NCBI RefSeq assembly: GCF_011038785.1
Contig: NZ_JAAKDT010000005.1
Coordinates: 28,381-92,380 of the forward strand
Length of the DNA stretch: 64,000 bases
Direction of reading: 5' to 3'
Source: Parabacteroides sp. ZJ-118
GTDB lineage: Bacteria > Bacteroidota > Bacteroidia > Bacteroidales > Tannerellaceae
Shown here: positions 6,745-64,000 of the stretch, piece by piece
How positions within the stretch are numbered: position 1 is the first letter of the stretch
Layout: every line of letters starts with the position of its first letter
Made by a program: the position numbers and the translations under genes
The notes under the pieces: model-generated
What the model saw: the letters and a program-made list of their open reading frames with translations, nothing else
Told to the model about the DNA's origin: nothing
Databases searched by the model: none

Positions 6745-7650
6745 TTATCCTCCGACCGACGCGGTTATCCCGCGAGCGGCGAATTGATCGATACACCTTC
6801 GCAAGACCGCTTCGGAGGGGGTGGATAGCGGGAGGTTCGCGGGGTTGTAGAGGGTCCCTCGCTTATCGTGCTTGCCTTTCCCGATGTCGTGATACGGGAG
6901 GAGGTTGACGACCTTCCGCCTCCACGGCAAGGAGGCCAGGAAGGTGGCGGAGCGGGCGATATTCTCCTCGTCCGCGTTGACACCCTCGATCAAGGGGACG
7001 CGGATGAGGAAGTCCGCGCCGGCCTCGGCGATCATCCGGAGGTTGGAGAGGATAGGCTCGTTCGGGACCCCCGTGAAACGACGATGGCTCCCGGAATCCA
7101 TATGCTTTAAGTCCACCAGGAAAAGGTCCGTGCGCGCCATGACCCTCCGGACGGTATCCGGCGAGGCGAACAGGGTCGTATCCACCGCGCGATGGATTCC
7201 CGAGGCTCCGCAGCGATCCAGCAGGGCGACCAGGTCCGCGGGATGCGACAACGGCTCTCCGCCGCAGAAGGTGACGCCCCCCTCGGAGCGATCCATGAAG
7301 AGTGTCTCCTTCTCGATCTCGCGCATGATCTCGTCGGCGGTATACGCGCGGCCCGACATCTCCGCCGCCAAGGTGGGGCAGACCGCGGCGCACCGGCCGC
7401 ACGCGCGGCACGAGGCGCGATCGGCGAGGATCCCCGCCTCCGTCAAGGTCAGCGCCCCGGCGGGGCAGGCATTCACGCAGGCCCCGCAGCCTATGCACCT
7501 CTTTCTCGTATACAGCCGCTCCGCCCGGGGCGATATGCCCTCCGGGTTATGGCACCACACGCAGGCCAGCGGGCATCCCTTCATGAAGATCGTGACGCGG
7601 ATGCCCGGCCCGTCGTTTATGGCGTATCGCTTGATATCGAACAACAGCAT
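6745..7650 (-). CDS. Glycyl-radical enzyme activase (PFL-AE family, HypE-like)
   Basis: Radical SAM enzyme that abstracts a hydrogen from the partner's C-terminal glycine. The radical SAM motif CPLACVWC (C26, C30, C33) is followed by two ferredoxin-type 4Fe-4S motifs, CIGCGACVNACP (about 52-63) and CRACGRCAAVCP (about 80-91). This insertion is typical of activases for dehydratase-type glycyl-radical enzymes rather than PFL itself. VTFCGGEPL is the SAM-binding GGE motif and VDLKHMD is also family-typical. The gene lies 4 bases after the partner enzyme, so they are coupled. Its GC content is clearly higher than the window average. If the partner is HypD, this would be HypE. Confidence 0.92.
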   Translation of the reverse strand: MLLFDIKRYAINDGPGIRVTIFMKGCPLACVWCHNPEGISPRAERLYTRKRCIGCGACVNACPAGALTLTEAGILADRASCRACGRCAAVCPTLAAEMSGRAYTADEIMREIEKETLFMDRSEGGVTFCGGEPLSHPADLVALLDRCGASGIHRAVDTTLFASPDTVRRVMARTDLFLVDLKHMDSGSHRRFTGVPNEPILSNLRMIAEAGADFLIRVPLIEGVNADEENIARSATFLASLPWRRKVVNLLPYHDIGKGKHDKRGTLYNPANLPLSTPSEAVLRRCIDQFAARGITASVGG

Positions 7651-7654
7651 GGCC

Positions 7655-10090
7655 TCAGAAAGTCTCTTGCTCCGTGCGCGCGATCACGTCCGCTTGCAGA
7701 TCGGCGTTCATATCGTTGAAATAGTCGCTATAGCCTGCCACGCGGACCAGCAGGTCCCGGTAGTCCTCCGGACACTTCTGGGCGGCGTGAAGCGTCTCCG
7801 AATCCACGATATTGAATTGGATATGATGACCTCCCAGGGCGAAGTAGCTACGTATCAGGGAGGCCAGCTTCGACAGGTCTTCCTCCCGTTTCAGCAGGCT
7901 CGGCAGGAAGCGTTGGTTCAGCAGCGTGCCGCCGCTCTTCACCTGATCCAGCTTGCCGAGCGACTTGATCACGGCGGAGGGCCCGTGGGTATCCGCCCCG
8001 TGCGAGGGCGAGGTACCGTCGGAGATCGCGCGCCCGGCCAGGCGGCCGTTCGGGGTGGCTCCCATCACCTTGCCGAAGTAGACGTGGCAAGTGGTGGAGA
8101 GCATATTCAGGTGGAAACACTCCCCTTTCGTGTTCGGCTTGCCCTCGATCGCGTCATACAAATCGTCGAAGACCTTCACGGCGATCTCGTCGGCGTACGG
8201 ATCGTCGTTGCCAAAGAAGGGCGTGCGGTTCAGGATCAGCTGGCGCATCGGCTCATGCCCCTCGAAATTGTCGGCCAGCGCGCCCAGCAGCGCCTCCATC
8301 GTGAAGCTCTTGTCGTCGAAGACATGTTTCCGCAAGGCGGAGAGGCTGTCGGTGACCGTGCCCAATCCGGTACACTGGATATACGTGGTGTTGTAGCGGG
8401 GCCCGCGGTCGTAGTAGTCCCGGCCCTTCGCGATACAATCGTCGATAAACAGGGAGAGGAACGTGGCGGGGGCGTACTTGGCGAACATGCGGTCGATGTA
8501 GTTGCTGACCCGTACCTTCATGTCCACGAAATAACGCACCTGGCGCATGAAGGCCTCGTAAAGCTCCTCGTACGTCCGGAAGCCGCGGGGGTCGCCGGTC
8601 TTCAGGCCGACGGCGCGGCCGCTTACCGGGTCCACGCCGTCGTGCAGCGTCACCTCCAATATCTTCGGCACGTTCAGGTAACCGGTCAGCACGTAGGCCT
8701 CCTTCCCGAAGGCGCCCACCTCGATGCAACCGCTGCAACCGCCCTCGCGGGCGTCGCGCAGCGACTTGCCTTGCCGCATCAACTCCTGCACGTAGACATC
8801 CGGGTTGAATACCGACGGGTAGCCGTGGCCTTGGCGGATCACCCGGCACCCGGCGCGGAGGAACCGCTCCGGCGTACGGGCGCTGACGTGGATGGCGCTG
8901 CCGGGCTGGAGGATGTGCAGCTCCTCGATCGTCTCCAGCATGATATAGGAGACCTCGCTCACGCCATCGCTGCCGTCCGCCCGGATACCGCCGATGTTCA
9001 GGTTCGTGAAATCGTTGTAGGTCCCGCTCTCCTTCGCCGTGATACCCACCTTGGGCGGGGCGGTGTGGTTGTTCACCTTGATGAAGAAGCAAGACATCAG
9101 CTCCTTCGCCTCGTCGCGGGTCAAGGTACCGGCGGCGACCTCCCGCTCGTAGAAGGGGGCCAGGTGCTGGTCGAAATGCCCCGGGTTCATGGCATCCCAG
9201 CCATTCAGCTCCGTGATCGTGCCGAGGTGGACGAACCAGTACATCTGGATCGCCTCCCAATAGGTACGGGGCGCGTGGGCAGGCACCCAGCGGCATACCT
9301 CGGCGATCTTCCTCAGCTCGGCGGCGCGGCGAGGATCTTTCTCGGTGAGAGACATCTCGTCGGCCAGGTCGGCGTGTCGCTCGGCCAGCAGGATGGCGGC
9401 GTCGCAGGAGATCGACATGGCCGTCAGCTCCTCCTGCTTGTCGGTGGCCTCCGGATCGTTCATGAAATCCAGGGCGCCCAGCTCTCCCTCGACGCGTCTC
9501 TTCAGGTCGAGCAGGCCATATTGGTAGACCTTGCCGTCCAGCGCGGTATGCCCGGGGGCGCGTTGCTCCATGAACTCGGTGAACATGCCCACCTCGTAGG
9601 CCTCTTTCCAAGCCTTGGGGACGTGGCCGAAGATGCGCTCGCGCTGCGTACGGCCTTTCCAGTACGGGATCACCTCCCGCTCGTAGGTATCGATATCCGC
9701 CTGGGAGATGGTGTAACGCTGCAGCTCCCGGGTATTCAGGATATGCAGGTCCTCCACGCTATGGCAGGTAAGCTCCGGGAAGGTGGGCACGGCCTTGGGA
9801 CGGGGTCCGCGCTCGCCGACGATCAACTCGTCCTCGCCGATATAGATCGTCTTCCGCTTGCAGATCTCCAGGAAGTTCAGGGCACGCAGGATAGGGATCG
9901 GATACTTCCCGTAATTCTCCCGGTAGAAACGGGTCTCGATCAGGGCCCGCTCGATCGAGAGGGAGGGCTGGGCCTCGAAGCTCCGCCGGCGCAGGCGCTT
10001 GACGCGGTCGTTCATGCCCAGGTTGTTCGCGCCCGTAGAAGGGATCGCCCGATCGTGTACGCACGAGGGCGCATGGCTAGTCGTATTCAT
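7655..10090 (-). CDS. hypD: Glycyl-radical enzyme, probably trans-4-hydroxy-L-proline dehydratase (HypD-like)
   Basis: Oxygen-sensitive glycyl-radical enzyme of 811 aa. The active-site loop GGCSGCIEVGAFGKEAY places the thiyl Cys at about 455 with Glu two residues later (C-x-E). The C-terminal RVAGYSDYF carries the radical glycine at about 786. The C-I/V-E pattern, the following TGYLNVPKILE and ISDGTSPSHGADTHGPSA-type segments resemble, from memory, the clostridial HypD that dehydrates trans-4-hydroxyproline to pyrroline-5-carboxylate. PFL would show a Cys-Cys pair instead. The start is the ATG at 10088-10090, since the longer frame begins with an unlikely hydrophobic stretch. No proC lies next door, so reduction to proline would use a distant gene. 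Substrate is inferred from motif similarity; other dehydratase classes are possible. Confidence 0.8.
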   Translation of the reverse strand: MNTTSHAPSCVHDRAIPSTGANNLGMNDRVKRLRRRSFEAQPSLSIERALIETRFYRENYGKYPIPILRALNFLEICKRKTIYIGEDELIVGERGPRPKAVPTFPELTCHSVEDLHILNTRELQRYTISQADIDTYEREVIPYWKGRTQRERIFGHVPKAWKEAYEVGMFTEFMEQRAPGHTALDGKVYQYGLLDLKRRVEGELGALDFMNDPEATDKQEELTAMSISCDAAILLAERHADLADEMSLTEKDPRRAAELRKIAEVCRWVPAHAPRTYWEAIQMYWFVHLGTITELNGWDAMNPGHFDQHLAPFYEREVAAGTLTRDEAKELMSCFFIKVNNHTAPPKVGITAKESGTYNDFTNLNIGGIRADGSDGVSEVSYIMLETIEELHILQPGSAIHVSARTPERFLRAGCRVIRQGHGYPSVFNPDVYVQELMRQGKSLRDAREGGCSGCIEVGAFGKEAYVLTGYLNVPKILEVTLHDGVDPVSGRAVGLKTGDPRGFRTYEELYEAFMRQVRYFVDMKVRVSNYIDRMFAKYAPATFLSLFIDDCIAKGRDYYDRGPRYNTTYIQCTGLGTVTDSLSALRKHVFDDKSFTMEALLGALADNFEGHEPMRQLILNRTPFFGNDDPYADEIAVKVFDDLYDAIEGKPNTKGECFHLNMLSTTCHVYFGKVMGATPNGRLAGRAISDGTSPSHGADTHGPSAVIKSLGKLDQVKSGGTLLNQRFLPSLLKREEDLSKLASLIRSYFALGGHHIQFNIVDSETLHAAQKCPEDYRDLLVRVAGYSDYFNDMNADLQADVIARTEQETF

Positions 10091-30078: not shown

Positions 30079-31128
30079 TTACAGAGCCAGATTTTCATTG
30101 TTGTCTGAGCACTGAGTCACATTCTTTTGTACATATTCCCTACTTGTATTGGCATAACAATAGACACAGAAATGGCGGCAAGTGTTATACCTACCGATAT
30201 CTTTGCTTATCATGCAACCGCAGGCTTTCCGTTGGCCTTTGTCTTTTAGGTCTTTGCGTTTGTCGGGTAAAGTGGGAAACGCACCAAAAAGATCCGGTTC
30301 GGGTAATCGGCCTGTTCGAAGATAATAAACCAATTCATAATCTTCCCCAAACACACGCTCCATTAACTCACCGTCAATACACCGGTTATGTTCAATGCCA
30401 TAAACCGCAAGGTCAATATCCTCGGCACAAGTAGCGAGTGTCACATTCCAACCGGTAGAAGACCAAATCTCCCTCAACTTCACCAATCCCTCTACCGTTT
30501 CTTGGCGCTGCGCCGCATTCATCTCAGCTGTTTCCACATCCTCTTTCGTAAAGTAATTCGTCTCTTTTATAAGATTGTTCTGTACCTTACGATACGCCTT
30601 TACATCTACGAAACTGAACACGAGCTTATCTGTATATCCTTTCAACAGATTGCCGATCTTCCAAATACGGCCAAGCAGGACACGGGGTGTGATAGATGAA
30701 CTCATGATCAACGGATCGAATCGCCAGATCACCCGTCCCTTCCCTATCATTTCTGACAATTCCCGAAATGTCTCTACCCGCTGCATAACGCTCGGCACAT
30801 TCGGCTCAAATCCTTCGCTCACATAGTCATTCAATGTGAACTGAAAATAATAATGGATGCCTCTCCTATCCAACTCATGCAAATAAGGTAATATCGGTTT
30901 CGGATTCTTTGTCCAAAATACGATTGCCTTACACCGCTCAAACGACACATACGTTTTCCGTCGGTTAAATGGATTATACCAAACACAATACCCCTTCGCC
31001 AAACGATTAAAGAACCACTTGGCATAAAAGGCCGGAATATCCGTTGACCGGCTGGCAGAGATGATGACGGGAGCAAGTGCCTCGACTTGCTCGCCGGAAT
31101 CGGTGGTAATTGTTATCTTATCAATCAT
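30079..31128 (-). CDS. System A: DUF1848 protein, possible permuted radical-SAM enzyme
   Basis: 349 aa, no signal peptide. It opens with VIISASRSTDIPAFYAKWF; then AIVFWTKNPKPILPYL, YYFQFTLNDY and RVIWRFDPLI follow in the order seen for the barrel core of spore-photoproduct-lyase-like radical SAM proteins (TK-P, T-D, R-DP). The cluster motif comes last instead of first: CGC, then 11 residues, then CRHFCVYCYANTS (C317, C321, C324), which is CxxxCxxC followed by YA. I infer a circularly permuted radical SAM enzyme, but a structural Fe-S or zinc site is possible. Last gene of system A, 39 bases after the 607-aa gene. A close homologue is in system B. Confidence 0.82.
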   Translation of the reverse strand: MIDKITITTDSGEQVEALAPVIISASRSTDIPAFYAKWFFNRLAKGYCVWYNPFNRRKTYVSFERCKAIVFWTKNPKPILPYLHELDRRGIHYYFQFTLNDYVSEGFEPNVPSVMQRVETFRELSEMIGKGRVIWRFDPLIMSSSITPRVLLGRIWKIGNLLKGYTDKLVFSFVDVKAYRKVQNNLIKETNYFTKEDVETAEMNAAQRQETVEGLVKLREIWSSTGWNVTLATCAEDIDLAVYGIEHNRCIDGELMERVFGEDYELVYYLRTGRLPEPDLFGAFPTLPDKRKDLKDKGQRKACGCMISKDIGRYNTCRHFCVYCYANTSREYVQKNVTQCSDNNENLAL

Positions 31129-31167: not shown

Positions 31168-32991
31168 TTAGCACTTCAAATCAGGTAATTTCTCACTAAA
31201 CAGATCTAATTCTTGACCTGCATTTTTCCCTTTTTGATTTTCCTCTTTTACAATAGTTTGTTTTTCTTTTGAATATTCATATCCAAAATACTGAGCAATA
31301 TATCGTTGAGTTTCTTTCGTTACTTTCATAGTTTTCAATATTTCACTAAATTTATCTTGTTCATTTTTATGCAACACTAATAAATAGGCATCTTCTGCCA
31401 TATGCGATCGTTTGTGTGCTTTTCCAGATAAGCAAGGCAATGATTTTTTTATCCATTCTCCTATATTATTATCATCTAAGCCTTCTACCGATTTACGAAT
31501 TTCATCAAACTTAATATTCTTACCATCCATCATTTTCAATACTTCTAAATAATCTGCAACAATCGCTCTGTCAACAGATACAGAATTCTCTAATTCTTTT
31601 GCTTTCACTGAAAAACAGGACAAATGCCGGTTTACCATTTCACAAATTTCCAATGTAAGAACATTTGCTGGAAATATATTTCTATCCATTTCCATATATC
31701 CACATAATGTACCCCAAAGGATAAGGATATTCTTATAGTCAGATAATTCTTTTAGTTTCATATAAGAAGTAATCCCTTTATAACTTTCTCCTCTTAACAA
31801 AAATACAGCAATTGCGATAAGTTCTTCATTATCGATTCCTTTTATATTGAATGCTCTACCTATATCTCTTATATGTAGGGACAAATTATCAAAATATTTT
31901 CTTTCAGAAGAATTCTCCCAATAATCTAAACCCCTTTCTTTGCCTATTTCTTCTTTTATCTCTTTCACCAATTCCTTACATAAGACAAGTCGGTTAGCAG
32001 AAATATAATTAACCGTAATTTCATTTTTGATAATAAAGTTAACAACTCTATTGATAAATGGTTTTTCTTTTAACAGCAAAGCACCATTTTCCAGACAACA
32101 CCCTTCATCTGTTGGTTCAGCTTGTCCTTTTTTCCAATCTTCAATCGCATGGTTGGTATGCAACTCAATTATATATCTAAGTAAAGAATAATCATTTGGT
32201 GAGATACTTGGAAAAAATTCATATCCCCATTTCTTAGAAAAGAATTCTTTTACAGTAGTCCAATGTTCTCCAAACTGTTTCTTAAATCCTTCTATGCTAT
32301 TTTTATATTTTTCATAAAGCTCTTCAGCACGCTTCAATAAAAGATCTGGGATTCGAGGTGCTGAAATTATACTCGTTAATACATCATACAAGTCCTGTGT
32401 CAATTTAACTAGGTGAGCTAATTCTGGTGTTAAAGAAAGCTCTTGACCAAGTAAATAAGCATAAAATGCACCTTTTACTTTATCCTTTACAGTCTCCTGA
32501 CTTTTCTCGATAGCTATATCACTACAGTTTGGTATAATATTCAGATCTTTTAACTTCAAAGAGCTTACTGTTGGATATATACGATAATCTTTATAATATT
32601 TTATAGCTCTATTATCCTTAGTATTGATTATAGTCATCTTATATTCATTTTCCGAGAAGAAAAACAATCTGCTATTCATAGGTGTTAAATCAATAGTATG
32701 ACTGCACAAATAAATTTCTTTTCCGTCTATTTTTTCAACATTGAATTGTTTGCAATCATCAACAGCAATTTCTATTAGCAGAGGGAAATTATCTCGCTCT
32801 GGATCATGTATCGTGAATGAAACTGGATAATCAAAAAGTATGATATGGTTTGGAAATCGCTTGACTTCATCAATCAACTCAATTGATTTGTAACCTGTTT
32901 TACGTTGTGCATAAAACGATAAAGGAGATATACTCTCTGCTTGTAAGATATTATCTAAATTTAAACTTGATGTAGGTATATAAAGTTTCAT
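31168..32991 (-). CDS. System A: 607-aa protein of unknown family
   Basis: I do not recognise the family. The start MKLYIPTSSLNLDNILQ is at the ATG at 32989-32991, 10 bases after the ATPase gene. The longer frame runs back into that gene. The N-terminal half (1-150) alternates strands and helices (NHIILFDYPVSF, PLLIEIAVDD). A helical segment KGAFYAYLLGQELSLTP (about 172-188) matches in place and pattern the segment LGALIIMRLAREKYMNF of the system B protein, and both are followed by long helical regions. No catalytic motif, membrane helix or zinc cluster is visible. It is AT-rich (19 of 60 G+C in one sampled line). It probably works with the neighbouring ATPase, since the two stay adjacent in both systems. 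Confidence 0.75.
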   Translation of the reverse strand: MKLYIPTSSLNLDNILQAESISPLSFYAQRKTGYKSIELIDEVKRFPNHIILFDYPVSFTIHDPERDNFPLLIEIAVDDCKQFNVEKIDGKEIYLCSHTIDLTPMNSRLFFFSENEYKMTIINTKDNRAIKYYKDYRIYPTVSSLKLKDLNIIPNCSDIAIEKSQETVKDKVKGAFYAYLLGQELSLTPELAHLVKLTQDLYDVLTSIISAPRIPDLLLKRAEELYEKYKNSIEGFKKQFGEHWTTVKEFFSKKWGYEFFPSISPNDYSLLRYIIELHTNHAIEDWKKGQAEPTDEGCCLENGALLLKEKPFINRVVNFIIKNEITVNYISANRLVLCKELVKEIKEEIGKERGLDYWENSSERKYFDNLSLHIRDIGRAFNIKGIDNEELIAIAVFLLRGESYKGITSYMKLKELSDYKNILILWGTLCGYMEMDRNIFPANVLTLEICEMVNRHLSCFSVKAKELENSVSVDRAIVADYLEVLKMMDGKNIKFDEIRKSVEGLDDNNIGEWIKKSLPCLSGKAHKRSHMAEDAYLLVLHKNEQDKFSEILKTMKVTKETQRYIAQYFGYEYSKEKQTIVKEENQKGKNAGQELDLFSEKLPDLKC

Positions 32992-33001
32992 GTCATATTT
33001 A

Positions 33002-34057
33002 TTAGAGTGGTAAAACATCATCTTCTCCCATATATACATCTGAATCCTCAGATGGTAATTTAGGAGAAAGATTATCTGTATATAATAAATAAAGGTTCTT
33101 AATAGGTCTGGTTGTTGCCACATAAATAGCCGACTCACGATCTAAGATAGGATCCACAGGGTGGGCATATTTACGGACTTCCCCATGTTCACCAATTCCA
33201 CAAAAAGGTATAAAAACATGCTCAAATTCTAATCCTTTAGAACAATGCCAAGTGATAATTACCGGATTGGAAGACTTAAAGTCTATCTCCATATCATCCC
33301 TTGTTTTCCATTCAACAGGTATTCCTTTTGATAAAAAATAATCCCTTATAATTTCAACAGAATCATTATAGTAAACCAAAATTCCAATTTTAGTCAAACC
33401 ACCACTATTTCTTATCTGTATAATTCTATCAAGTTGAGGAATAGCGTTAGCTGTCGCTACAACATAAATATTCTCCTCTACCTTCTCTAATCTGGGTTTG
33501 TCTCCATGATTGACACAAGCCAAAGAAAGCCTTATTGAAGATTTGATAAATTCCCCTACTTTCGCATTTTCAAAAGTCAATCGATGATTAAGAGCTAAAT
33601 CTTTTGGATGTACACCCATTTGTTTGGCCGTAGATTCAACTGATTGCACATTGGAGTTGCGAAATCTCATTATTGATTGTTCCGAATCGCCAAAAAACCA
33701 ACAATATGTTCCATGCGATTTGAAATCCTCTATTTCATCAGCACTAAAATCCTGACATTCATCAATGAACAGATAAGTGTAATTCGGTTTCGATGAACGT
33801 TGCCACTCTGCGTAATGATATACATGTTTACCCGAAGGATCTATCTCCTTTAATTCGTCAATGAAAAACTGTTTCAGTGATTTCGTATATACGATGATCG
33901 CATAAGAATTAGACTTCACCGATACTTTCTTCGCCTTTTTAAAAAGAAGAAAAGACTTGCCGGAACCTGCAACACCTCTCACGACAGCCGTTCGCTCTGC
34001 AGAAAGATCCAAAATACCTCTTTGGGACTCGTCTGGTGTTAATGTATCAAATGACAT
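33002..34057 (-). CDS. System A: minimal UvrD-like SF1 ATPase/helicase
   Basis: 351 aa, about half the size of UvrD or Rep. Motifs in order: Walker A GVAGSGKSF (about 28-36), Walker B LFIDECQDF (about 97-105), motif III FFGDSEQSI, motif IV LALNHRL, motif V SKGLEFEHVFIP and motif VI IYVATTRPIKNLYLLYT. The core is complete, but the 1B/2B accessory domains are missing. It may be a nucleic-acid-activated ATPase rather than a processive helicase. The start is the ATG at 34055-34057, 19 bases after the methyltransferase stop. The alternative upstream start is TTG. The same gene order, ATPase then unknown protein, recurs in system B. Confidence 0.85.
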   Translation of the reverse strand: MSFDTLTPDESQRGILDLSAERTAVVRGVAGSGKSFLLFKKAKKVSVKSNSYAIIVYTKSLKQFFIDELKEIDPSGKHVYHYAEWQRSSKPNYTYLFIDECQDFSADEIEDFKSHGTYCWFFGDSEQSIMRFRNSNVQSVESTAKQMGVHPKDLALNHRLTFENAKVGEFIKSSIRLSLACVNHGDKPRLEKVEENIYVVATANAIPQLDRIIQIRNSGGLTKIGILVYYNDSVEIIRDYFLSKGIPVEWKTRDDMEIDFKSSNPVIITWHCSKGLEFEHVFIPFCGIGEHGEVRKYAHPVDPILDRESAIYVATTRPIKNLYLLYTDNLSPKLPSEDSDVYMGEDDVLPL

Positions 34058-34076: not shown

Positions 34077-35030
34077 TTAACGATAGGGTTCAAATTTATC
34101 AGCCAATCGATTCACCGCTCTACAGTTATTCGATCTAATACCATCCATAATCGTATTCGCAAAATCCGCATGACAGATAATTCGATAAGCAACTTTAGTT
34201 CTATCCATTTGTTTTCGGCTATGTGTTACTGTAAAAATATCTTGCATATAGCATCCTTCACATTTATCTTCCATATAATAACATGAATGAGGAATAATAC
34301 TTTTATATGACCTATTTCTACGAAGTGCTTCATTTATTCCTTTGTTCATTAGTTCTGGATAAAACAAATATACATCATCCAGTTTAGTTGTTACATCAGA
34401 TAAGATCAAAGCACCGTCAGGCAAGAGCAAAGGCAACAAATAATCAACTACATCACTGTAAATATTTCCTACAGAAAAAGATCTATTTTGAACAAACTCA
34501 TTAAGAGCTTTAAATGAGAGAATATAATGATATTCCCTATTAAGCATTTGTATAAAGTCCTCAAAATCCTGTCCTGTTTCAATAAATAAGCACATTGGAT
34601 GAATATGAAACTCTATTTTTATATCATCAACTCCTTTTAAATCCTCCCCCAAGTGATAGAGAACACGGATAGCATCTGGATTGGCATCTACAGCATCGAC
34701 ATTAATACGTTTTAGGTTTGGAAGCAAAAACTGAAGACCGATTATCATTCCTACTATTTCCCCTCCTGTGCCACAACAAAAATCCAGAATATTGATCTCC
34801 TCAATCTGTTGCATAGCATCCTTGTACTTTATGTTTTGGAATAATTTTAACACAATAGAATTGGCTTCAGCAAAACTTCTTGGGAAATAAGTGCCCAAAT
34901 ACAGTTTTACAAAATCATAAGGTTGATCCGGATTATAAACAACATCCTGCGGACGAGGTTCATATACAGCCTCGTATTTACCATAAATAATGGAATCCAA
35001 CCATTGGGGTAAATTGACATTTACAATCAT
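34077..35030 (-). CDS. System A: SAM-dependent methyltransferase (Rsm22-like)
   Basis: 317 aa. SAM motif I is INILDFCCGTGGE (about 80-92), followed by INVDAVDANPDAIRVL (motif II with acidic end) and a motif VI-like LLPDGALILSD. Before the fold, YLGTYFPRSFAEA resembles the Y-x-R-x-P-x-x-YA helix of Rsm22-type methyltransferases. The C-terminal third has a Cys cluster, HSCYYMEDKCEGCYMQD, as in Rsm22. That would suggest RNA as substrate, but the match is from memory. It is the first gene of system A. There is no promoter box in the 60 bases before it; the nearest clean one is 390 bases away, beyond a putative structured RNA ending in a U-run. Confidence 0.78.
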   Translation of the reverse strand: MIVNVNLPQWLDSIIYGKYEAVYEPRPQDVVYNPDQPYDFVKLYLGTYFPRSFAEANSIVLKLFQNIKYKDAMQQIEEINILDFCCGTGGEIVGMIIGLQFLLPNLKRINVDAVDANPDAIRVLYHLGEDLKGVDDIKIEFHIHPMCLFIETGQDFEDFIQMLNREYHYILSFKALNEFVQNRSFSVGNIYSDVVDYLLPLLLPDGALILSDVTTKLDDVYLFYPELMNKGINEALRRNRSYKSIIPHSCYYMEDKCEGCYMQDIFTVTHSRKQMDRTKVAYRIICHADFANTIMDGIRSNNCRAVNRLADKFEPYR

Positions 35031-56827: not shown

Positions 56828-57301
56828 ATGGAAACAGAGAAACAGTTGATATCTCATTTGTTCCAAGACAAAGAAAATGGAAAATGGATAATACAAACCA
56901 ACGATGAACATCAAAGAGGTGTTGCAGAAATGGCAGCTTCCTTTTCCGGGCAGTTCGGACTTCCCTCTTGGGGGTATACGCTTGGAATGCTTCACGACAA
57001 AGGGAAAGAGCGTGATGCATTTCAGCAATATATCCGCACGACAAGCGGTCTACCTGTGACTGACGAAAAATCGTATGGAGAGCATCATCATGCGTTTGTA
57101 GGTGGAATATTGGTGACGAACCTTATGGGGAAGAGTGTATTCAATCTTCTTGCCAACCAGATAATCTCTCATCATACAGGCCTGCATGATTATGTAGATG
57201 CGGAGAGCGTCATAGAGAAAAGGCAACTTCCCGAAGAGATAAACAAAAGAAGCTACTTACCTGTATCACAAATATTTTTTGTACTTTTGCGCTTAGTATA
57301 G
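56828..57301 (+). pseudogene. Cas3'' HD-nuclease fragment of a type I CRISPR locus
   Basis: 157 residues. The opening holds NDEHQRGVAEMAASFSGQFG (His 28), YTLGMLHDKGKERDAFQQYI (His 56-Asp 57), EHHHAFVGGI and ISHHTGLHDY, the HD-nuclease residues of type I Cas3. The helicase half that should follow is missing. After about residue 145 the sequence turns into unrelated DNA carrying the promoter of system B. In type I-C loci cas3 is first in the operon, so this is the 5' stub with its own promoter. No other cas gene or CRISPR array is in the window. The HD core could still fold, so residual activity is not excluded. Confidence 0.8.
57282..57289 (+). promoter_or_regulatory. -7 box (TACTTTTG) for system B
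   Basis: A perfect box inside the tail of the cas3'' stub, 61 bases before the DUF1848 ATG. A 10-bp palindrome TTTGTACAAA (57307-57316) lies just downstream and could be an operator. Confidence 0.6.
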
Positions 57302-57349: not shown

Positions 57350-58420
57350 ATGGCTTGGAAGAAAATAAATATTCAGCGTGAGAATGGAGAATGGATTGAT
57401 GCCCAGGCTCCAGAGATTGTTTCTGCGAGTAGAAGCACTGACATTCCGGCATTTTATGCCGACTGGTTTTTTCATAGATTGGAGATTGGATATTCTGCAT
57501 GGCGAAATCCTTTCAATGGAGTGAACAGCTACGTTTCTTATAAAAATACACGCTTTATCGTGTTTTGGTCCAAAAACCCGAAACCTTTGTTGCAACATCT
57601 GGCCAAATTGAAATCTCATTCTCCAAAAATAGAGTGCTATATTCAGTACACGCTAAATGATTATGTGGCAGAAGGGCTGGAAAAAGGCGTGCCGCCATTG
57701 GATGAGCGTATTGAAACTTTCAAGGCTCTTGTTGAAAAATTAGGAAAGGGTAGAGTTATTTGGAGATTTGATCCATTAATCCTTACAGATAGAATATCGC
57801 AGGATGACCTGCTCCGCAAAATAGATTATATCGGTGACAGACTGCTCGGCTATGCAGAGAAACTTGTGTTCAGCTTTGCTGACATCGTTTCTTATAGGAA
57901 GGTGAAAATAAACTTGGAACGAAACGGCATAAACTACCATGAGTGGACAAAAACAGAAATGATTGATTTCGCAAGGAAACTGTCTGAACTCAACAAAAAA
58001 TGGGGATATGAATTGGCTACTTGTGGAGAGAAACCAGAATACAGCAGATTTGGGATTGTTCCGAATCATTGTGTAGATGACAATCTGATGATACGTTTCG
58101 CTTGGAAAGACAGCGTTTTGATGAAGGTGCTTGGCGTAGAGGTAAAAACTATCGACAACGGATTGTTTGGGAGTCAAGAAATCCCGACAAATGCCATTAT
58201 GCTTGATACAGGGCACTATGCTATCAAAAAGAAAGACAATGCGGACAAAGGGCAGCGTGAACTGTGTGGTTGTAAGATAAGCAAAGACATCGGTCAATAC
58301 GACACTTGTGCGCATCTTTGCGAATACTGCTATGCGAACACGAGCAAGGAAACGGCTTGCAGAAACTATCGCACAGCAAAGGAAAGCGGATTAATATCAG
58401 AGACAATAACCGGAAAATAA
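57350..58420 (+). CDS. System B: DUF1848 protein, possible permuted radical-SAM enzyme
   Basis: 356 aa from the ATG at 57350; an upstream TTG start is less likely. EIVSASRSTDIPAFYADWF, FIVFWSKNPKPLLQHL, YIQYTLNDY and RVIWRFDPLI match the system A protein almost word for word. The C-terminus has CGC, 11 residues, then CAHLCEYCYANTS (C320, C324, C327). It is clearly orthologous in type to the system A protein yet differs at many other sites, so the split is old. First gene of system B, just after the cas3'' stub, with its own promoter. Confidence 0.82.
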   Translation: MAWKKINIQRENGEWIDAQAPEIVSASRSTDIPAFYADWFFHRLEIGYSAWRNPFNGVNSYVSYKNTRFIVFWSKNPKPLLQHLAKLKSHSPKIECYIQYTLNDYVAEGLEKGVPPLDERIETFKALVEKLGKGRVIWRFDPLILTDRISQDDLLRKIDYIGDRLLGYAEKLVFSFADIVSYRKVKINLERNGINYHEWTKTEMIDFARKLSELNKKWGYELATCGEKPEYSRFGIVPNHCVDDNLMIRFAWKDSVLMKVLGVEVKTIDNGLFGSQEIPTNAIMLDTGHYAIKKKDNADKGQRELCGCKISKDIGQYDTCAHLCEYCYANTSKETACRNYRTAKESGLISETITGK

Positions 58421-58427
58421 ATAGACT

Positions 58428-59492
58428 ATGGCTGGATATTATTTTAATCTACCACAAATAACAGATTTGACTATTCCGCAACAAGCGGCATTAGATGATT
58501 TAGGACAAATCGCATTGTCTGGAGGGCCAGGTACAGGGAAATCGGTTGTTTCACTTTGGAGGCACATCTCAAACTATATAAGTAATCCTGCAAAGAGAAG
58601 TTTGTTGTTGACTTATACGACAACATTGAAAGAATATTTGAAAGCTTGCTGTAGAAGCCAGAATGAAGATGCAGCAAAAATGGTTGCGACTTCAATTAAT
58701 AGTCGATATAAAATCCACAATTGCAAATTTGCGGAAATAATCATTGATGAGGCTCAAGATTTGGATGAAGAATACTATCATGGTATTTTGTCAAAGGTGT
58801 CATACGGAGCTGATGATTCGCAAATTCTTTATCCAGACCACTGCTGTTGTCAGTCGCAATTAACAAGCTTGTTTCCCGACAATGTAGAGCATGTTCTAAG
58901 CAAGAATTTCAGAAATACTCAAAGGATTATGAAATTTGCGAAAGCAACTTTCCCGAATGCCGTAATCCCAAGAGAGATAATTGATGGATTAGCAAGTAAT
59001 GTTGGGGAACTTCCTGTGTTTATGGTTTCAAATGGCAGCAGTTACGACCGAACAAATGACAAACAAAATAATGCAATATTAGAGATAATAAACACCTTCA
59101 AATCAGACACACACAATATTGCTATTCTTGTTCCTTGGAAAAGCGATGTTCAAGTATTTGAAAACATTCTTAAAGAAAAGATTGATGACTTTTCTCTTTA
59201 TTATGAGAACAGAGTAAGATTTCCCGATGGTTGTGCTGCCATTAAGAATGTGCATATAACAACTTTCAAATCTGCGAAAGGATTGGAGTTTGATACAGTC
59301 ATTATTCCAAATTTTGACATTTTGGAAAGATTGCCGAGAATTGTCCAGGATAAAGACACTGGCGAGAATAAAATTATTTGCGACTGGCAGGATTTATACG
59401 TTGCTTGTACCAGGGCAAAAAGCAATTTATATTTGATTAGTAATTACGACATGCCGCGCCTGAATGCGGTAGTTGATAAAACTGTATTATAA
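58428..59492 (+). CDS. System B: minimal UvrD-like SF1 ATPase
   Basis: 354 aa. Walker A SGGPGTGKSVV (about 31-41), Walker B IIIDEAQDLDEE (about 104-115), motif IV VLSKNFRN, motif V FKSAKGLEFDTVIIP and motif VI LYVACTRAKSNLYLIS. The motif III slot, GDxxQ in the system A protein, reads ILYPDHCCCQS here, so coupling of ATP hydrolysis to movement may be altered. No accessory domains. It is 7 bases after the DUF1848 gene and one base before the unknown gene. Confidence 0.85.
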   Translation: MAGYYFNLPQITDLTIPQQAALDDLGQIALSGGPGTGKSVVSLWRHISNYISNPAKRSLLLTYTTTLKEYLKACCRSQNEDAAKMVATSINSRYKIHNCKFAEIIIDEAQDLDEEYYHGILSKVSYGADDSQILYPDHCCCQSQLTSLFPDNVEHVLSKNFRNTQRIMKFAKATFPNAVIPREIIDGLASNVGELPVFMVSNGSSYDRTNDKQNNAILEIINTFKSDTHNIAILVPWKSDVQVFENILKEKIDDFSLYYENRVRFPDGCAAIKNVHITTFKSAKGLEFDTVIIPNFDILERLPRIVQDKDTGENKIICDWQDLYVACTRAKSNLYLISNYDMPRLNAVVDKTVL

Positions 59493-59493
59493 T

Positions 59494-61086
59494 ATGAGAA
59501 CTTACTATTTCCCTATAAAGTCTGAGTGTCTCGCACACTATTTTGGCTGTGCTTGTCTTAAACCGAGCAAGTATTTTACGAACAAACTGCAGGACATTCA
59601 GAACTTATTTGAGAATTTCTTGCTTATAACAACAAATAGGGGTTGCATTGAATGCAACTGTTGTTTGGAGATTGTCCTGACAAATGAAGAAGAAGCAAAG
59701 CTAATATCTGTAGGTAGAACGTGGTATTTATTTGAATCCTCTTTGCCTATTACTCGTGTGAAAAAGATTTTTTTCACAGAAGAGCAGCAGAAAAACAAGA
59801 CCCTGACTAACATCAGAATGGGAACGGCTTTCATTCCAGATTCAATTATTGGTACAGTTTGTTGTTTCGAAGATGTCACAGTTAATGAGGTTAAGAAACC
59901 TGAAGATTGTTATGTCAAAGATCAGACAAAAGAGATAGAACTATATGATCGTATTCTTGGTGCTTTGATTATAATGAGACTGGCAAGGGAAAAGTATATG
60001 AATTTCTCAGAAACATACATTGAAACGCTTGCTGTTTTTAACAATTTAATTGCCGATGCACTTGTCAAGGCTGGAAAAGGTTCCAATGACCAATATTCTG
60101 GACTATTTACGGAATCAAAAAGTTATGCTTGTTTGTTACCCTATTTAAATAAGCAAGTAGATGTTGATGATGTAAAGCAGATGGCAAAAAACGAGGGTCA
60201 GACTGTATCTCAAAATAAAATCACAAGAAAGATAGAATTGGATAGTCTCGACAAACAGACGTATATCTTAGCTGTATTAGCAAGCTATGGGGTTGGATCC
60301 GAATCAAAAAGAGACAAAGTTGACGGATTGATTCTTTCTAATTTTGAAGGCATTAAAAGTGCGCAATTAGTCGCATTATGCTTTGGATATAACCGTGGCT
60401 ACAATGTGTTTAGTAGTTTCTATGGTACATCAGAAGGCAACAGAATTGATGTAAAGTTTCTGCTTGATTCGCAATTAGACTATTACACGGTTGAGAGTGT
60501 ATATCAGTTTGTCTTCAACAAGAAGATTTCTAAAAATCTCTATTATTTGGACTCATGGTGCAGCAAGCAGCGTACATCAAGCATAATAAAAAAGACAGAC
60601 TATTGCGTATTAGATACAATCGTGATAGGTAAAAAAAAACCGAAGGTTGGTTCCAAAGAATGGTGGAGTTCTTTGTCTCAATTTTATCAAAGGATTGACG
60701 TTAGTTCTCTCTTTCAAACACCTTTGTCAACTCTGTTCAAGAAAGTTGCAGACCATGTTATTCAAGAATGTAATGAAGAAAAAGAAGAAGAAATCGCAGA
60801 GATAAAAGCTCAATACGAGGGAATAAAAAGTCGTTTAATGGAATTGAAAAAGACGATGGAAAACCTTTCTTTGAATCAAAGAGAAAGCTCCACAAACGAA
60901 GAAAGGACTGGTGACGTAAATCGTGAAGACATAATAAAAGAAGTTTTTGGTTATTTCGATAAGAATGACAAAGAGTTGAATGCTATCTTAAAATCTTTAG
61001 GAATAAATTCAAAAGGCTTGAAGAAGAACGAAAAGATATTCAAAATTCTGAATGCAAAAGAACAAAACATTTTTGAAAAAAATTAA
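59494..61086 (+). CDS. System B: 530-aa protein, counterpart of the 607-aa system A protein
   Basis: I do not recognise the family. It begins MRTYYFPIKSECLAHYFG, one base after the ATPase stop. The opening resembles that of the system A protein in pattern (short strand, then P, then helix), and LGALIIMRLAREKYMNF (about 154-170) aligns with KGAFYAYLLGQELSLTP there. It has more cysteines (CIECNCC at about 51-57, CC at about 123-124) than its counterpart. A coiled coil is likely at about 430-465 (KEEEIAEIKAQYEG, SRLMELKKTMEN). No enzymatic motif is evident. The identical neighbour (ATPase) in both systems suggests a complex. Confidence 0.72.
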   Translation: MRTYYFPIKSECLAHYFGCACLKPSKYFTNKLQDIQNLFENFLLITTNRGCIECNCCLEIVLTNEEEAKLISVGRTWYLFESSLPITRVKKIFFTEEQQKNKTLTNIRMGTAFIPDSIIGTVCCFEDVTVNEVKKPEDCYVKDQTKEIELYDRILGALIIMRLAREKYMNFSETYIETLAVFNNLIADALVKAGKGSNDQYSGLFTESKSYACLLPYLNKQVDVDDVKQMAKNEGQTVSQNKITRKIELDSLDKQTYILAVLASYGVGSESKRDKVDGLILSNFEGIKSAQLVALCFGYNRGYNVFSSFYGTSEGNRIDVKFLLDSQLDYYTVESVYQFVFNKKISKNLYYLDSWCSKQRTSSIIKKTDYCVLDTIVIGKKKPKVGSKEWWSSLSQFYQRIDVSSLFQTPLSTLFKKVADHVIQECNEEKEEEIAEIKAQYEGIKSRLMELKKTMENLSLNQRESSTNEERTGDVNREDIIKEVFGYFDKNDKELNAILKSLGINSKGLKKNEKIFKILNAKEQNIFEKN

Positions 61087-61087
61087 T

Positions 61088-62605
61088 ATGAGCTTCTTCA
61101 ATAATGCATATACAGAGGCTTCAAGTGTTGAATCGCTTGAAACCTATCTTCAAAATCATTCTGACGAATTATATGACATATATTCATCAAGGCATGATGT
61201 TCTGTCTAAAGTTTCTGATGACATTGACAAATTTGTACAACTAAAATTCAAGTATTACTCTCAACTTGATTTCTCGAGCACTCAAAACAGGTCGTTTCTG
61301 TTGATTATGATTGACTTGGCAGAACGTCTTAATTTGCAAGGTGCGATGGCTCGTCTTACAAGTCTCGTGTCAGATGAAGGAATAGAGATAACGAGCAGAA
61401 TGCAGGCAGGCTTGTCCTTTGTTTACCCGAAACCCTGTACAGCTGATGATTTAGTAGAGAAATTTGATGATATTTGCCGTTTGCTTCAAATAGCTATTGA
61501 AGAAGAAGAAGACAGTAACCGTCCCTCTCTGGTTACATTCCTTAATTACTATAGTGCTGTTGTAGATTCATTGCATCCTACGAAAGCTCTGATAGTGAAG
61601 GATAAAATTCTTGAAGCTGTAAAACAAAACAAATATCCTTTCTTGAATGATGTTAAAGATGTCTGTAATATTGATGTCAATAATAAGCAAGCCTATGAAC
61701 AGTTACAGGCAGCAATAGATCATCTGAATTGTCAATATATGGGTGTCTCACCGTTTGCGCCAGATGATGAGCCGTGTCTTATTGAAGAAGGTACAGAGTA
61801 TGCGAATTGGATAAATTCTGGCAATAAATGTTTTGACACAATTAGACAATATGCTGTTTCTCATGCTTCCGACAGCTTTGATAAAGATCGTGGTGTTAAT
61901 CCTATAACAGAAGAACAAGGGTTGTATAATTATCTGAAAAAATATGGCAATATGCATAAAGCTAAGATGCAGTCTGCTCTCGTAGAGCCTTTCCCACAGC
62001 AATTTGGTCAATCATTGACAATAATTGATTGGGGATGCGGACAAGGATTGGCATCAATGCTATTCTGTGAGAAATATTATCAAGAAAATACCAATCAAAT
62101 CATTTTGATCGAGCCATCAGAATTGGCGATTAAACGAGCCTCGCTTCATTGCAAAGCCGTTAATCCAGAATGTTCTGTAAGAACAGTATGCAAGAGGCTT
62201 GATGATGTTGAGCTAAATGACATAGGCATCATAAAGAATAATGTTGTAGTGAATCTTTTCTCGAACATACTTGACATAGACGATTATTCTACACCGCATA
62301 TCCTTTCGTTGATGGATGGAATAAAGAAAATAGAAAACTATTACGTCTGTGTATCCCCGCATATCAACGATATAAAAACGAACAAGATTGATAATTTCAG
62401 ACGTTATTTCCAATCCATGTCTGGATATGTAGAAATCCATAACATTGACAATACAAAACTGGGGGAGTTTTGGATGTGCAACAACGTATTTAAATCAGGG
62501 GTCACTAATCACGGGTTGCAACATGGCTGCTCTCCATACCACGATGAGAATGGATGTATAAAAAAATGGACAAGAGTACTAAGAGTCTTCAAAGTGACAC
62601 TCTAA
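61088..62605 (+). CDS. System B: methyltransferase with long N-terminal helical domain
   Basis: 505 aa from the ATG at 61088, one base after the previous stop. An upstream in-frame ATG at 61052 overlaps that gene. Residues 1-300 look helical and have no motif I know. SAM motif I is TIIDWGCGQGLAS (about 311-323), then IILIEPSELAIKRAS (motif II) and KNNVVVNLFSNILDI. The C-terminus has NHGLQHGCSPYHDENGC, a His/Cys patch that could replace the Cys cluster of the system A enzyme. The catalytic fold is comparable to that of system A, but the protein is longer by almost 190 residues. Last gene of system B. Confidence 0.78.
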   Translation: MSFFNNAYTEASSVESLETYLQNHSDELYDIYSSRHDVLSKVSDDIDKFVQLKFKYYSQLDFSSTQNRSFLLIMIDLAERLNLQGAMARLTSLVSDEGIEITSRMQAGLSFVYPKPCTADDLVEKFDDICRLLQIAIEEEEDSNRPSLVTFLNYYSAVVDSLHPTKALIVKDKILEAVKQNKYPFLNDVKDVCNIDVNNKQAYEQLQAAIDHLNCQYMGVSPFAPDDEPCLIEEGTEYANWINSGNKCFDTIRQYAVSHASDSFDKDRGVNPITEEQGLYNYLKKYGNMHKAKMQSALVEPFPQQFGQSLTIIDWGCGQGLASMLFCEKYYQENTNQIILIEPSELAIKRASLHCKAVNPECSVRTVCKRLDDVELNDIGIIKNNVVVNLFSNILDIDDYSTPHILSLMDGIKKIENYYVCVSPHINDIKTNKIDNFRRYFQSMSGYVEIHNIDNTKLGEFWMCNNVFKSGVTNHGLQHGCSPYHDENGCIKKWTRVLRVFKVTL

Positions 62606-62776: not shown

Positions 62777-62797
62777 GTAAGCATTTGATAAACTACA
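62756..62797. repeat. 21-bp tandem copy of an IS66-type end
   Basis: GTAAGCATTTGATAAACTAC plus A is at 62756-62776 and again at 62777-62797, the second continuing into an IS66 remnant. Confidence 0.8.
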
Positions 62798-63190
62798 GGT
62801 ATTAAACTTTATATATAACAATAGCGACTGTCACTATGAAGCTAATAGTTGCAGTCGCTATTGTTTTGTTGAACCTATATGTTGCAGTCGGCATTAGTTG
62901 CCGGATTCCCCATTTTGTTTTGTCAATACACTTTCCGGATGTTGCAGCTTCCATCTGTGCGGAAGCAGATCTAGAAGCTCCTTATGAGTTGCCTTTTTAT
63001 GATAAGGCATCCGGGCGATGATGTCATTCAGGTAATCCCTCGGATTGACATCGTGTGCCTTGCAGGTGGCCAGCAGGGAACAGATGATTGACATGTTGAC
63101 CGCTGCTTCGTGGTTGCCACAGAAGAGATAATTTTTCCGTCCCAGAGTAATCGGTCGGATGACATTCTCCGCCAGGTTGTTGTCCCAAAG
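62777..63190. mobile_element. Truncated IS66-family element (414-bp right-end fragment)
   Basis: Identical by eye to 63354-63767, offset 577 bases. It begins with an IS66-type end (GTAAGC...), has a 13-bp hairpin ACAATAGCGACTG/CAGTCGCTATTGT (62818-62864), and contains the end of tnpC. It stops abruptly at CCCAAAG, where other DNA begins. Confidence 0.88.
62894..63190 (-). pseudogene. IS66 transposase (TnpC) C-terminal fragment
   Basis: About 99 residues of transposase, from LWDNNLAENVIRPITLGRKN through CSLLATCKAHDVNPRDYL to KQNGESGN. That is the typical IS66 C-terminus after the third acidic residue (NNLAEN). Upstream, the frame is fused to unrelated sequence (63191-63292), so the ATG of the open frame there is spurious. 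No activity is expected. Confidence 0.85.
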
Positions 63191-63353
63191 TGGAGAGACC
63201 GGAGCATGCTGGGACAGCATGAGGGCTGAAAACGAATGCCTAAAACGGCAATTCGCCGTTGGAAGGCATAGCTGATTATCAGTTATTTGCATTTTTCGTT
63301 TATGGTATCAGGCCATAAAAACCGGAGTATGTTGGGACAAATGCCGTTTCGAG
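63191..63353. mobile_element. Solo end fragment resembling an IS21-family element
   Basis: On the minus strand TGTCCCAACATACTCCGG (near 63340) and TGTCCCAGCATGCTCCGG (near 63205) form a doubled terminal unit, as in IS21-type ends that start with TG. A near-perfect stem CGGCAATTCGCCG lies between. No istA or istB frame remains. Confidence 0.5.
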
Positions 63354-64000
63354 GTAAGCATTTGATAAACTACAGGTATTAAACTTTATATATAACAATA
63401 GCGACTGTCACTATGAAGCTAATAGTTGCAGTCGCTATTGTTTTGTTGAACCTATATGTTGCAGTCGGCATTAGTTGCCGGATTCCCCATTTTGTTTTGT
63501 CAATACACTTTCCGGATGTTGCAGCTTCCATCTGTGCGGAAGCAGATCTAGAAGCTCCTTATGAGTTGCCTTTTTATGATAAGGCATCCGGGCGATGATG
63601 TCATTCAGGTAATCCCTCGGATTGACATCGTGTGCCTTGCAGGTGGCCAGCAGGGAACAGATGATTGACATGTTGACCGCTGCTTCGTGGTTGCCACAGA
63701 AGAGATAATTTTTCCGTCCCAGAGTAATCGGTCGGATGACATTCTCCGCCAGGTTGTTGTCCCAAAGCAGGCGCCCGTCGTTCAGACACCTCATCATGTT
63801 GTCCCATCGGGTATAGGCATACGTGATGGCTTTACCGGCCTGGGATCCGGGACTGTACTTGATGCCTTCCGTTTCCATCCATGCCTTCATGGCCTCCAGG
63901 ATGGGACGGGCCAGTTCTTGACGCTTCGCCTTGCGTTCATCGTACGACAAGCCCGCTTCGTCACAGCGGCGCTCTATCTTGTAGACATGCTGTATCTGGG
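63354..64000. mobile_element. IS66-family insertion sequence, right part, running off the window
   Basis: Begins with GTAAGCATTTGATAAACTAC and holds tnpC on the minus strand. Its first 414 bases repeat 62777-63190 exactly by eye, so the two arose from one element recently. Confidence 0.88.
63471..64000 (-). CDS. tnpC: IS66 transposase TnpC, partial (5' end outside window)
   Basis: The frame continues open to the last base; I read IQHVYKIERRCDEAGLSYDE before the apparent start at 63950, so that start is not real. PGSQAGKAITYAYTRW, LNDGRLLWDNNLAENVIRP (third catalytic acidic residue) and CGNHEAAVNMSIICSLLATC are IS66 DDE signatures. The visible part is about 176 residues of a protein of about 520. 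It may be intact. tnpA and tnpB should lie beyond the window. Confidence 0.9.
   Translation of the reverse strand, partial: QIQHVYKIERRCDEAGLSYDERKAKRQELARPILEAMKAWMETEGIKYSPGSQAGKAITYAYTRWDNMMRCLNDGRLLWDNNLAENVIRPITLGRKNYLFCGNHEAAVNMSIICSLLATCKAHDVNPRDYLNDIIARMPYHKKATHKELLDLLPHRWKLQHPESVLTKQNGESGN

What the first reader, a model, noticed from the sequence alone, without database searches (positions are those of the whole stretch)
57350..62605. System B: second, diverged copy of the same four-gene set with swapped order
DUF1848, ATPase, unknown protein and methyltransferase occur again 27 kb away on the other strand, with gaps of 7, 1 and 1 bases. In A the methyltransferase is first and DUF1848 last; in B this is reversed, while the ATPase-unknown pair stays together. 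Two independent copies with conserved content but a different order argue strongly that the four proteins work as a unit. Having both in one genome suggests different specificities.
Basis: partly seen in the sequence, partly recalled or inferred. Interest (0 to 1): 0.93.

Follow-up and report, generated by a model that had tools for sequence, protein, structure and literature searches.

The report
ADP-ribosyltransferase-fold module found in BREX
Four tightly packed genes, for a DUF1848 protein, a motor-type ATPase, a protein modelled as an ADP-ribosyltransferase joined to an ADP-ribosyl-hydrolase, and a methyltransferase, recur as a set in Bacteroidota; because the set, whole or with one gene replaced, also sits inside known anti-virus (BREX) clusters in two species, it is likely an anti-phage defence system, which would tie ADP-ribose chemistry to BREX.

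Summary
In detail: DUF1848, ATPase, "unknown" and methyltransferase lie at 57350-62605(+), gaps 7, 1, 1. The "unknown" carries Pfam 2CompART and 2CompARG domains. AlphaFold models of the B and A unknowns both show a DarT-like ADP-ribosyltransferase (ART) fold followed by an ARH3-like hydrolase fold, though BLASTP sees no A-B similarity. DUF1848 (48% identity) and the ATPases (profile E 1.6e-28) are homologous; the methyltransferases share only a 12-column SAM motif. So A and B are cousins, not copies. In 25 genome loci the B order is kept wherever the contig shows it, and tree distances of the four proteins correlate in 15 complete operons. Two loci (L023 whole; L025 with AlkB instead of DUF1848) lie between PglX and PglZ of BREX clusters; an A-type ATPase+ART pair occupies the same slot in a third genome. 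AlkB-like dioxygenases accompany or replace DUF1848 in six loci. Most likely: a mobile anti-phage module with an ATPase plus ART/ARH core, the methyltransferase and DUF1848/AlkB predicted to act on nucleic-acid bases. Context supports defence; the chemistry is untested.

The parts
57350..58420 (+). System B, DUF1848 protein (radical-SAM-like CX3CX2C motif near the C-terminus)
   Evidence: PF08902 E 1.3e-86; 7 cysteines invariant in 17 of 17 aligned proteins; ATG start
58428..59492 (+). System B, compact SF1 (UvrD-like) ATPase
   Evidence: PF13361 E 5.8e-15; GxGxGK and DEAQD-type motifs invariant in 22 of 22; best solved relative by profile HelD, E 2.2e-24
59494..61086 (+). System B 'unknown': 2CompART + 2CompARG domains and a C-terminal Rho-N/SAP-like helical domain
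61088..62605 (+). System B, class I SAM-dependent methyltransferase with a helical N-terminal part
   Evidence: Weak Methyltransf_25 E 2.4e-4; CmoA-like 1im8 E 0.003; DWGxGQ motif region conserved in 19 aligned proteins
30079..31128 (-). System A, DUF1848 protein
   Evidence: PF08902 E 2.7e-94; 48% identical to B
31168..32988 (-). System A 'unknown': DarT-like ART fold followed by ARH3-like fold
33002..34057 (-). System A, SF1 ATPase
   Evidence: PF01443 E 1.9e-11, UvrD_C E 2.2e-6; profile match to B ATPases E 1.6e-28
34077..35030 (-). System A, methyltransferase-like protein of another family than B
   Evidence: Methyltransf_23 E 0.0031; 12-column SAM-motif match to the B family only
56828..57301 (+). 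Cas3 HD-domain stub directly upstream of B (neighbour, probably not part of the system)
   Evidence: TIGR01596 E 1.9e-18

Best explanation
System B is a four-gene operon that is likely a horizontally mobile anti-phage defence module, in which an SF1 motor-type ATPase and a protein modelled with an ADP-ribosyltransferase fold plus an ADP-ribosyl-hydrolase fold are predicted to form the sensing and effector core, while the methyltransferase and the radical-SAM-like DUF1848 protein would mark or unmark nucleic-acid bases. Shown by calls: gene content, operon conservation, the ART-then-ARH folds of the models, low GC, location of relatives inside BREX clusters, and AlkB-like dioxygenases beside or in place of DUF1848. 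Inferred: that the ATPase moves on DNA or RNA; that the ART/ARH protein ADP-ribosylates a target during infection or, if catalytically dead, reads ADP-ribose marks; and that methyltransferase plus DUF1848 (or AlkB) set a self-mark or reverse a lesion, because DUF1848 and AlkB appear to fill one slot.
For: Operon kept in 25 loci where visible. Correlated tree distances in 15 operons, 0 of 2000 permutations as high for each of six pairs. L023 and L025 between PglX and PglZ of BREX, A-type pair of G222 in the same slot. 123 flank proteins of B loci match 137 PADLOC families at E<=1e-20, against 3 families for 51 control proteins. GC 36.9% against 48.1% for the window. AlkB-like gene in six loci, without DUF1848 in four of them. 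PADLOC has no model that matches the ART/ARH protein.
Against: No phage-resistance experiment. BREX is seen in 2 of 25 B loci, and these two dominate the flank tally; the window copy lies beside only a cas3 stub. No His or Arg is shared by the ART domains of A, B and the AlkB variant at 85% conservation (one Glu is), and the ARH-like domains do not match the ARH family by profile (E 0.11-0.3), so catalysis is uncertain. No match in phage or plasmid records or viral contigs. The methyltransferase substrate is unknown. The DUF1848-ATPase correlation is weak (r 0.375).
Confidence: 0.5

Rival explanations
1. A fused toxin-antitoxin-like system: the ART domain ADP-ribosylates DNA as DarT does, the ARH domain reverses it, and the other genes regulate or repair. 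Defence or maintenance would follow from growth arrest.
For: ART and ARH folds in one chain, DarT as the nearest ART structure; base-repair-type partners AlkB and DUF1848.
Against: Neither unknown hits PF14487 or a macrodomain; no shared His or Arg in the ART domains.
Confidence: 0.2
2. A guard module that watches a neighbouring restriction or BREX system and acts when a phage inhibits it.
For: BREX-embedded loci and a type I restriction enzyme near L018; precedent of PrrC inside EcoPrrI (PMC12707154, passages).
Against: Many loci, the window copy included, show no adjacent intact restriction system by my reading.
Confidence: 0.1
3. A non-defence nucleic-acid modification or repair operon that is exchanged between hosts for other reasons.
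For: Helicase, methyltransferase, AlkB-like and radical-SAM-like parts are also typical of RNA or DNA modification; sporadic occurrence, 4 of 147 relatives.
Against: Same slot inside BREX taken by two divergent subtypes, and defence genes in the flanks.
Confidence: 0.15

Closest known systems
Pfam 2CompART / 2CompARG (PF22546, PF22545)
   Same: The B unknown passes both gathering scores.
   Different: The A unknown has no Pfam hit at E<=0.1. The names imply an earlier description of a '2-component system' that nine searches of the held library did not find.
DarTG toxin-antitoxin / phage defence
   Different: No PF14487 and no macrodomain hit; hydrolase-like domain is ARH-like and in the same chain; different partners.
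BREX
   Same: Two B-type loci and one A-type pair lie inside BREX clusters between PglX and PglZ.
   Different: The window system has none of the BREX core genes; it looks like a guest.
PA0069-type radical-SAM family (NF033668)
   Same: The CX3CX2C motif region of DUF1848 aligns at E 2.5e-8, 46% identity over 26 columns.
   Different: The motif is C-terminal in DUF1848 and N-terminal in PA0069, which suggests circular permutation; the rest aligns only weakly (E 0.06-0.07).
DUF1848 of DRT (reverse-transcriptase) systems in PADLOC
   Same: Both DUF1848 proteins hit RTasDUF1848 (E 9.8e-34 and 1.8e-42).
   Different: I saw no reverse transcriptase beside A or B; this was not searched for by a dedicated call.

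Membership tests
Pfam 2CompART/2CompARG | Score above the gathering cut-off for both domains | tested here: met
   B unknown 120.1 and 95.7 bits against 27
Pfam 2CompART/2CompARG (system A) | Score above the gathering cut-off | tested here: not met
   A unknown: 0 families at E<=0.1; related by fold and remote profile only
DarTG | DarT family sequence (PF14487) | tested here: not met
   No hit for either unknown at E<=0.1
DarTG | Macrodomain antitoxin | tested here: not met
   No macrodomain hit in the eight proteins of A and B
DarTG | ADP-ribosylation of DNA | not testable with these tools
   Needs an assay
BREX | PglZ, PglX and BrxC in the system | tested here: not met
   None among PADLOC hits of the window genes scanned; present around L023, L025 and L040
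Radical-SAM superfamily (DUF1848) | CX3CX2C cluster motif | tested here: met
   Invariant in 17 of 17; matches the motif region of PA0069 proteins
Radical-SAM superfamily (DUF1848) | TIM-barrel fold with the motif after the first strand | tested here: inconclusive
ADP-ribosyl hydrolases (ARH/DraG) | Sequence match to the family and metal-binding acids | tested here: inconclusive
   Fold match of models; profile comparison with nine ARH proteins E 0.11-0.3, not significant; metal residues not compared column by column
Anti-phage defence system | Encoded in defence loci | tested here: met
   Context only, driven by few loci
Anti-phage defence system | Confers phage resistance | not testable with these tools
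   Needs an experiment

The most novel reading that the evidence does not exclude
A new class of bacterial immune system that combines ADP-ribose chemistry with a write-and-erase base code: a DarT/ARH-fold effector driven by an SF1 motor, licensed by a methyltransferase whose mark is reversed by a circularly permuted radical-SAM enzyme or, in sister systems, by an AlkB dioxygenase, and plugged repeatedly into BREX clusters.
Probability: 0.2. Interest if true: 0.92.

Novelty: new variant of a known kind. Interest (0 to 1): 0.74.

Why it matters
If true, it adds a defence family of gut and environmental Bacteroidota that the one defence catalogue searched (PADLOC) does not describe, links ADP-ribose chemistry to BREX, gives DUF1848 a functional hypothesis (no paper in the held library names it), and offers a natural swap, DUF1848 for AlkB, that makes the question of which base chemistry it performs directly testable.

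Tried and rejected
Rejected: 'B is a copy of A'. BLASTP finds nothing between the unknowns or the methyltransferases, and the DUF1848 proteins fall in different clades. Rejected: B as a plain restriction-modification pair; no nuclease domain was found in its four proteins. Not supported: cargo of known phages or plasmids. The B unknown had no match in plasmids or phages at E 1e-5, and pattern scans of viral contigs confirmed no relative of the B or A unknown. The A unknown was not searched in plasmids or phages, and metagenome contigs were not searched.

Led nowhere: comparison of DUF1848 with DUF5131 (the script extracted no DUF5131 proteins, so the lines printed for it are stale and are no test); direct profile comparison of the ART domains with four DarT proteins (E 0.5-0.61) and of the ARH domains with nine ARH proteins (E 0.11-0.3); a four-gene set in L168 that I took for Wadjet-like, for which PADLOC gave no match at 1e-8; solved-structure sequence searches with profiles A2, A6 and A7, which gave no convincing relative; nine paper searches for DUF1848, the 2CompART name and combinations of these parts. 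That something is not in print is claimed only for those searches of a partial library.

Rows dropped: the flank tally left out L017 (near-copy of L016), open-ended ORFs and ORFs under 120 aa; L010, L016 and L019 gave no flank protein. The control used 51 proteins of 7 solitary DUF1848 loci. The distance correlations used 15 complete operons (window plus 14 of 25) and include two near-identical pairs (L016/L017, L020/L031), which can raise the correlations. The DUF1848 tree kept proteins of 250 aa or more, so L120, L121 and L122 are not in it; it is a quick tree with long-branch warnings.

Full report
Observation. With the ATG starts checked the genes are DUF1848 57350-58420, ATPase 58428-59492, 'unknown' 59494-61086 and methyltransferase 61088-62605, all on +, with gaps of 7, 1 and 1 bases. 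System A on the - strand runs methyltransferase, ATPase, unknown, DUF1848. Start to start they are 27 kb apart, facing ends 22.3 kb. A is 35.3% GC and B 36.9%, against 48.1% for the window and 49.1% for the stretch between them, so both look acquired.

Are A and B related? DUF1848: 48% identity. ATPase: 61-residue BLASTP match at E 2e-5, profile-profile E 1.6e-28. Unknowns: nothing by BLASTP, E 0.024 with the first profiles, and E 1.4e-4 (probability 52%) over 105 columns of the ART domain once three A-like proteins from other genomes were added; the ART domains alone give 6.2e-5 over 29 columns. Eighteen pairings of unrelated families gave 0.06-0.83. The helical domains do not match by profile (E 0.42). 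Methyltransferases: only a 12-column SAM motif (E 3e-4 and 9e-4), which class I methyltransferases share. So three of four components are homologous, one of them remotely, and the methyltransferase is not shown to be.

Conservation of B. A pattern scan of a collection of 84,980 species genomes gave 25 loci, 24 in Bacteroidota and one in a Sulfuricurvum MAG; the scan used two peptide patterns, so 25 is a lower bound. The methyltransferase follows the ART gene in 24 of 25 (the contig of L029 ends inside the ART gene). ATPase sequence lies upstream on the same strand in 23 of 25 (L027 and L030 begin at or inside the ART gene); it is broken or shortened in L007 and L021. DUF1848 lies upstream in 17 of 25; six contigs end before it would appear, and L014 and L025 lack it despite 8.8-9.0 kb of upstream sequence. 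Across 15 complete operons the tree distances correlate: ART-MT r 0.89, ATPase-ART 0.77, ATPase-MT 0.69, DUF1848-MT 0.67, DUF1848-ART 0.65, DUF1848-ATPase 0.375, each higher than all 2000 permutations. Shared ancestry of the hosts adds to this. The family is sporadic: PF22546 in 4 of 147 relatives, own genome included, and the B profile in 6 of 395 genomes of the class, own included and two of the six weak.

Other arrangements. The A order recurs in L038, L107 and L122, in L038 and L122 with one extra gene before DUF1848, which is in two pieces in L122. L039 and L040 hold only the A-type ATPase+unknown pair. L166, L167 and L168 hold ATPase, a 2CompART-type protein, a related methyltransferase and an AlkB-like 2OG-Fe(II) dioxygenase, with no DUF1848 seen; the methyltransferase matches the B family at E 2.6e-13 as a profile, while the L168 protein alone is not significant (E 0.018). 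In L023 and L024 an AlkB-like gene precedes DUF1848; in L025 it stands where DUF1848 would be. Among 32 DUF1848 regions fetched from relatives, seven have a B-type methyltransferase domain right after DUF1848 and L119 one gene further; in L110, L115 and L116 it is joined to a DEAD helicase, in L119 to an SF1 helicase, and L117/L118 have a 1631-1632-aa protein, which in L117 shows NERD, SF1-helicase and weak methyltransferase matches. In a quick tree of 49 DUF1848 proteins the solitary ~310-aa kind is apart from a set of 41 (SH-aLRT 99); A types sit in a set of nine (97) with four copies that have no recognised partner, and B types interleave with helicase-methyltransferase types. This points to partner exchange.

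Defence context. In L023 (Lutibacter flavus) the whole B module, and in L025 (Salegentibacter tibetensis) the module with AlkB in place of DUF1848, lie between PglX and PglZ of BREX clusters, followed by BrxL; BrxC was identified in L025. Two divergent subtypes in one slot are hard to explain without a defence link. Of 123 flanking proteins of B loci, matches at E<=1e-20 spread over 137 PADLOC families, against 3 families for 51 proteins beside solitary DUF1848 genes; families overlap and the two BREX loci dominate, so 137 is not a count of proteins or systems. L018 has a TIR protein and a type I restriction enzyme nearby, L031 an Mrr-nSTAND3 protein, L167 an HKD-Snf2 protein. Against: the window copy follows only a cas3 stub, and many loci show ordinary genes around the module.

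Mechanism. Shown: components, folds of models, linkage, context. Inferred: the ATPase surveys nucleic acid; the ART/ARH protein is the effector or an ADP-ribose sensor; methyltransferase and DUF1848/AlkB act on bases. The radical-SAM link of DUF1848 rests on its CX3CX2C motif (17 of 17 rows) and a 26-column match to PA0069-type proteins (E 2.5e-8); the motif is C-terminal here, so a circular permutation is likely but unproven. From memory, Pfam already notes that likeness; I did not check it. In an alignment of the ART domains of A, B and the AlkB variant no His or Arg is conserved at 85%, one Glu is; whether that Glu is catalytic was not tested, so the domain may bind rather than catalyse.

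Comparison with known systems. It is not DarTG (no PF14487, no macrodomain), not BREX (no core genes), and no PADLOC model hits the ART/ARH proteins. The Pfam names imply that someone has described an ART/ARG '2-component system'; nine searches of the held library did not find that paper, and one recalled candidate is not held. Of the papers, PMC9503650 was seen as abstract, passages and the whole of its section 3.8; PMC12707154 as passages; others as search listings. Rating: new variant of a known kind, with a core that deserves an experiment.

Noticed in passing
window 56828-57301: A Cas3 HD-domain stub ends just before B. A Cas3 profile over the own genome finds no clear remainder: besides the stub one HD match (C39) and two weak partial matches (C36, C82); the same profile rings in 12 of 14 control genomes.
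   Followed up: partly
window 62777-63767: IS66 transposase fragments lie downstream of B in a direct repeat (414 bases identical at 62777-63190 and 63354-63767) at the end of the contig; IS remnants or an assembly effect.
   Followed up: partly
L110, L115, L116, L117, L118, L119: DUF1848 genes followed by large helicase-methyltransferase proteins (DEAD in L110/L115/L116, SF1 in L119, NERD+SF1 in L117): possibly a sister family of systems.
   Followed up: partly
L102:1310-3314: A DUF1848 gene counted as solitary in the tree lies next to an N6/N4 DNA methylase gene (PF01555 E 7.7e-46).
   Followed up: no
L039:873-2996: Beside an A-type ATPase+unknown pair lie ThiF (E1-like) and multiubiquitin genes, as in ubiquitin-like bacterial conflict operons.
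   Followed up: no
L007:8965-13072: The relative closest in DUF1848 sequence has a shortened ATPase ORF and a methyltransferase in two ORFs, so it may be decaying.
   Followed up: no
L013:8446-8946, L020:8437-8955, L031:8437-8955: A 166-172-aa protein between DUF1848 and the ATPase; it is a Sel1/TPR repeat protein in L013 and L020.
   Followed up: no
L009:7625-7912: A small HTH regulator gene ends two bases before DUF1848, a possible controller of the operon; L018 has a similar small gene at 7577-7864.
   Followed up: no
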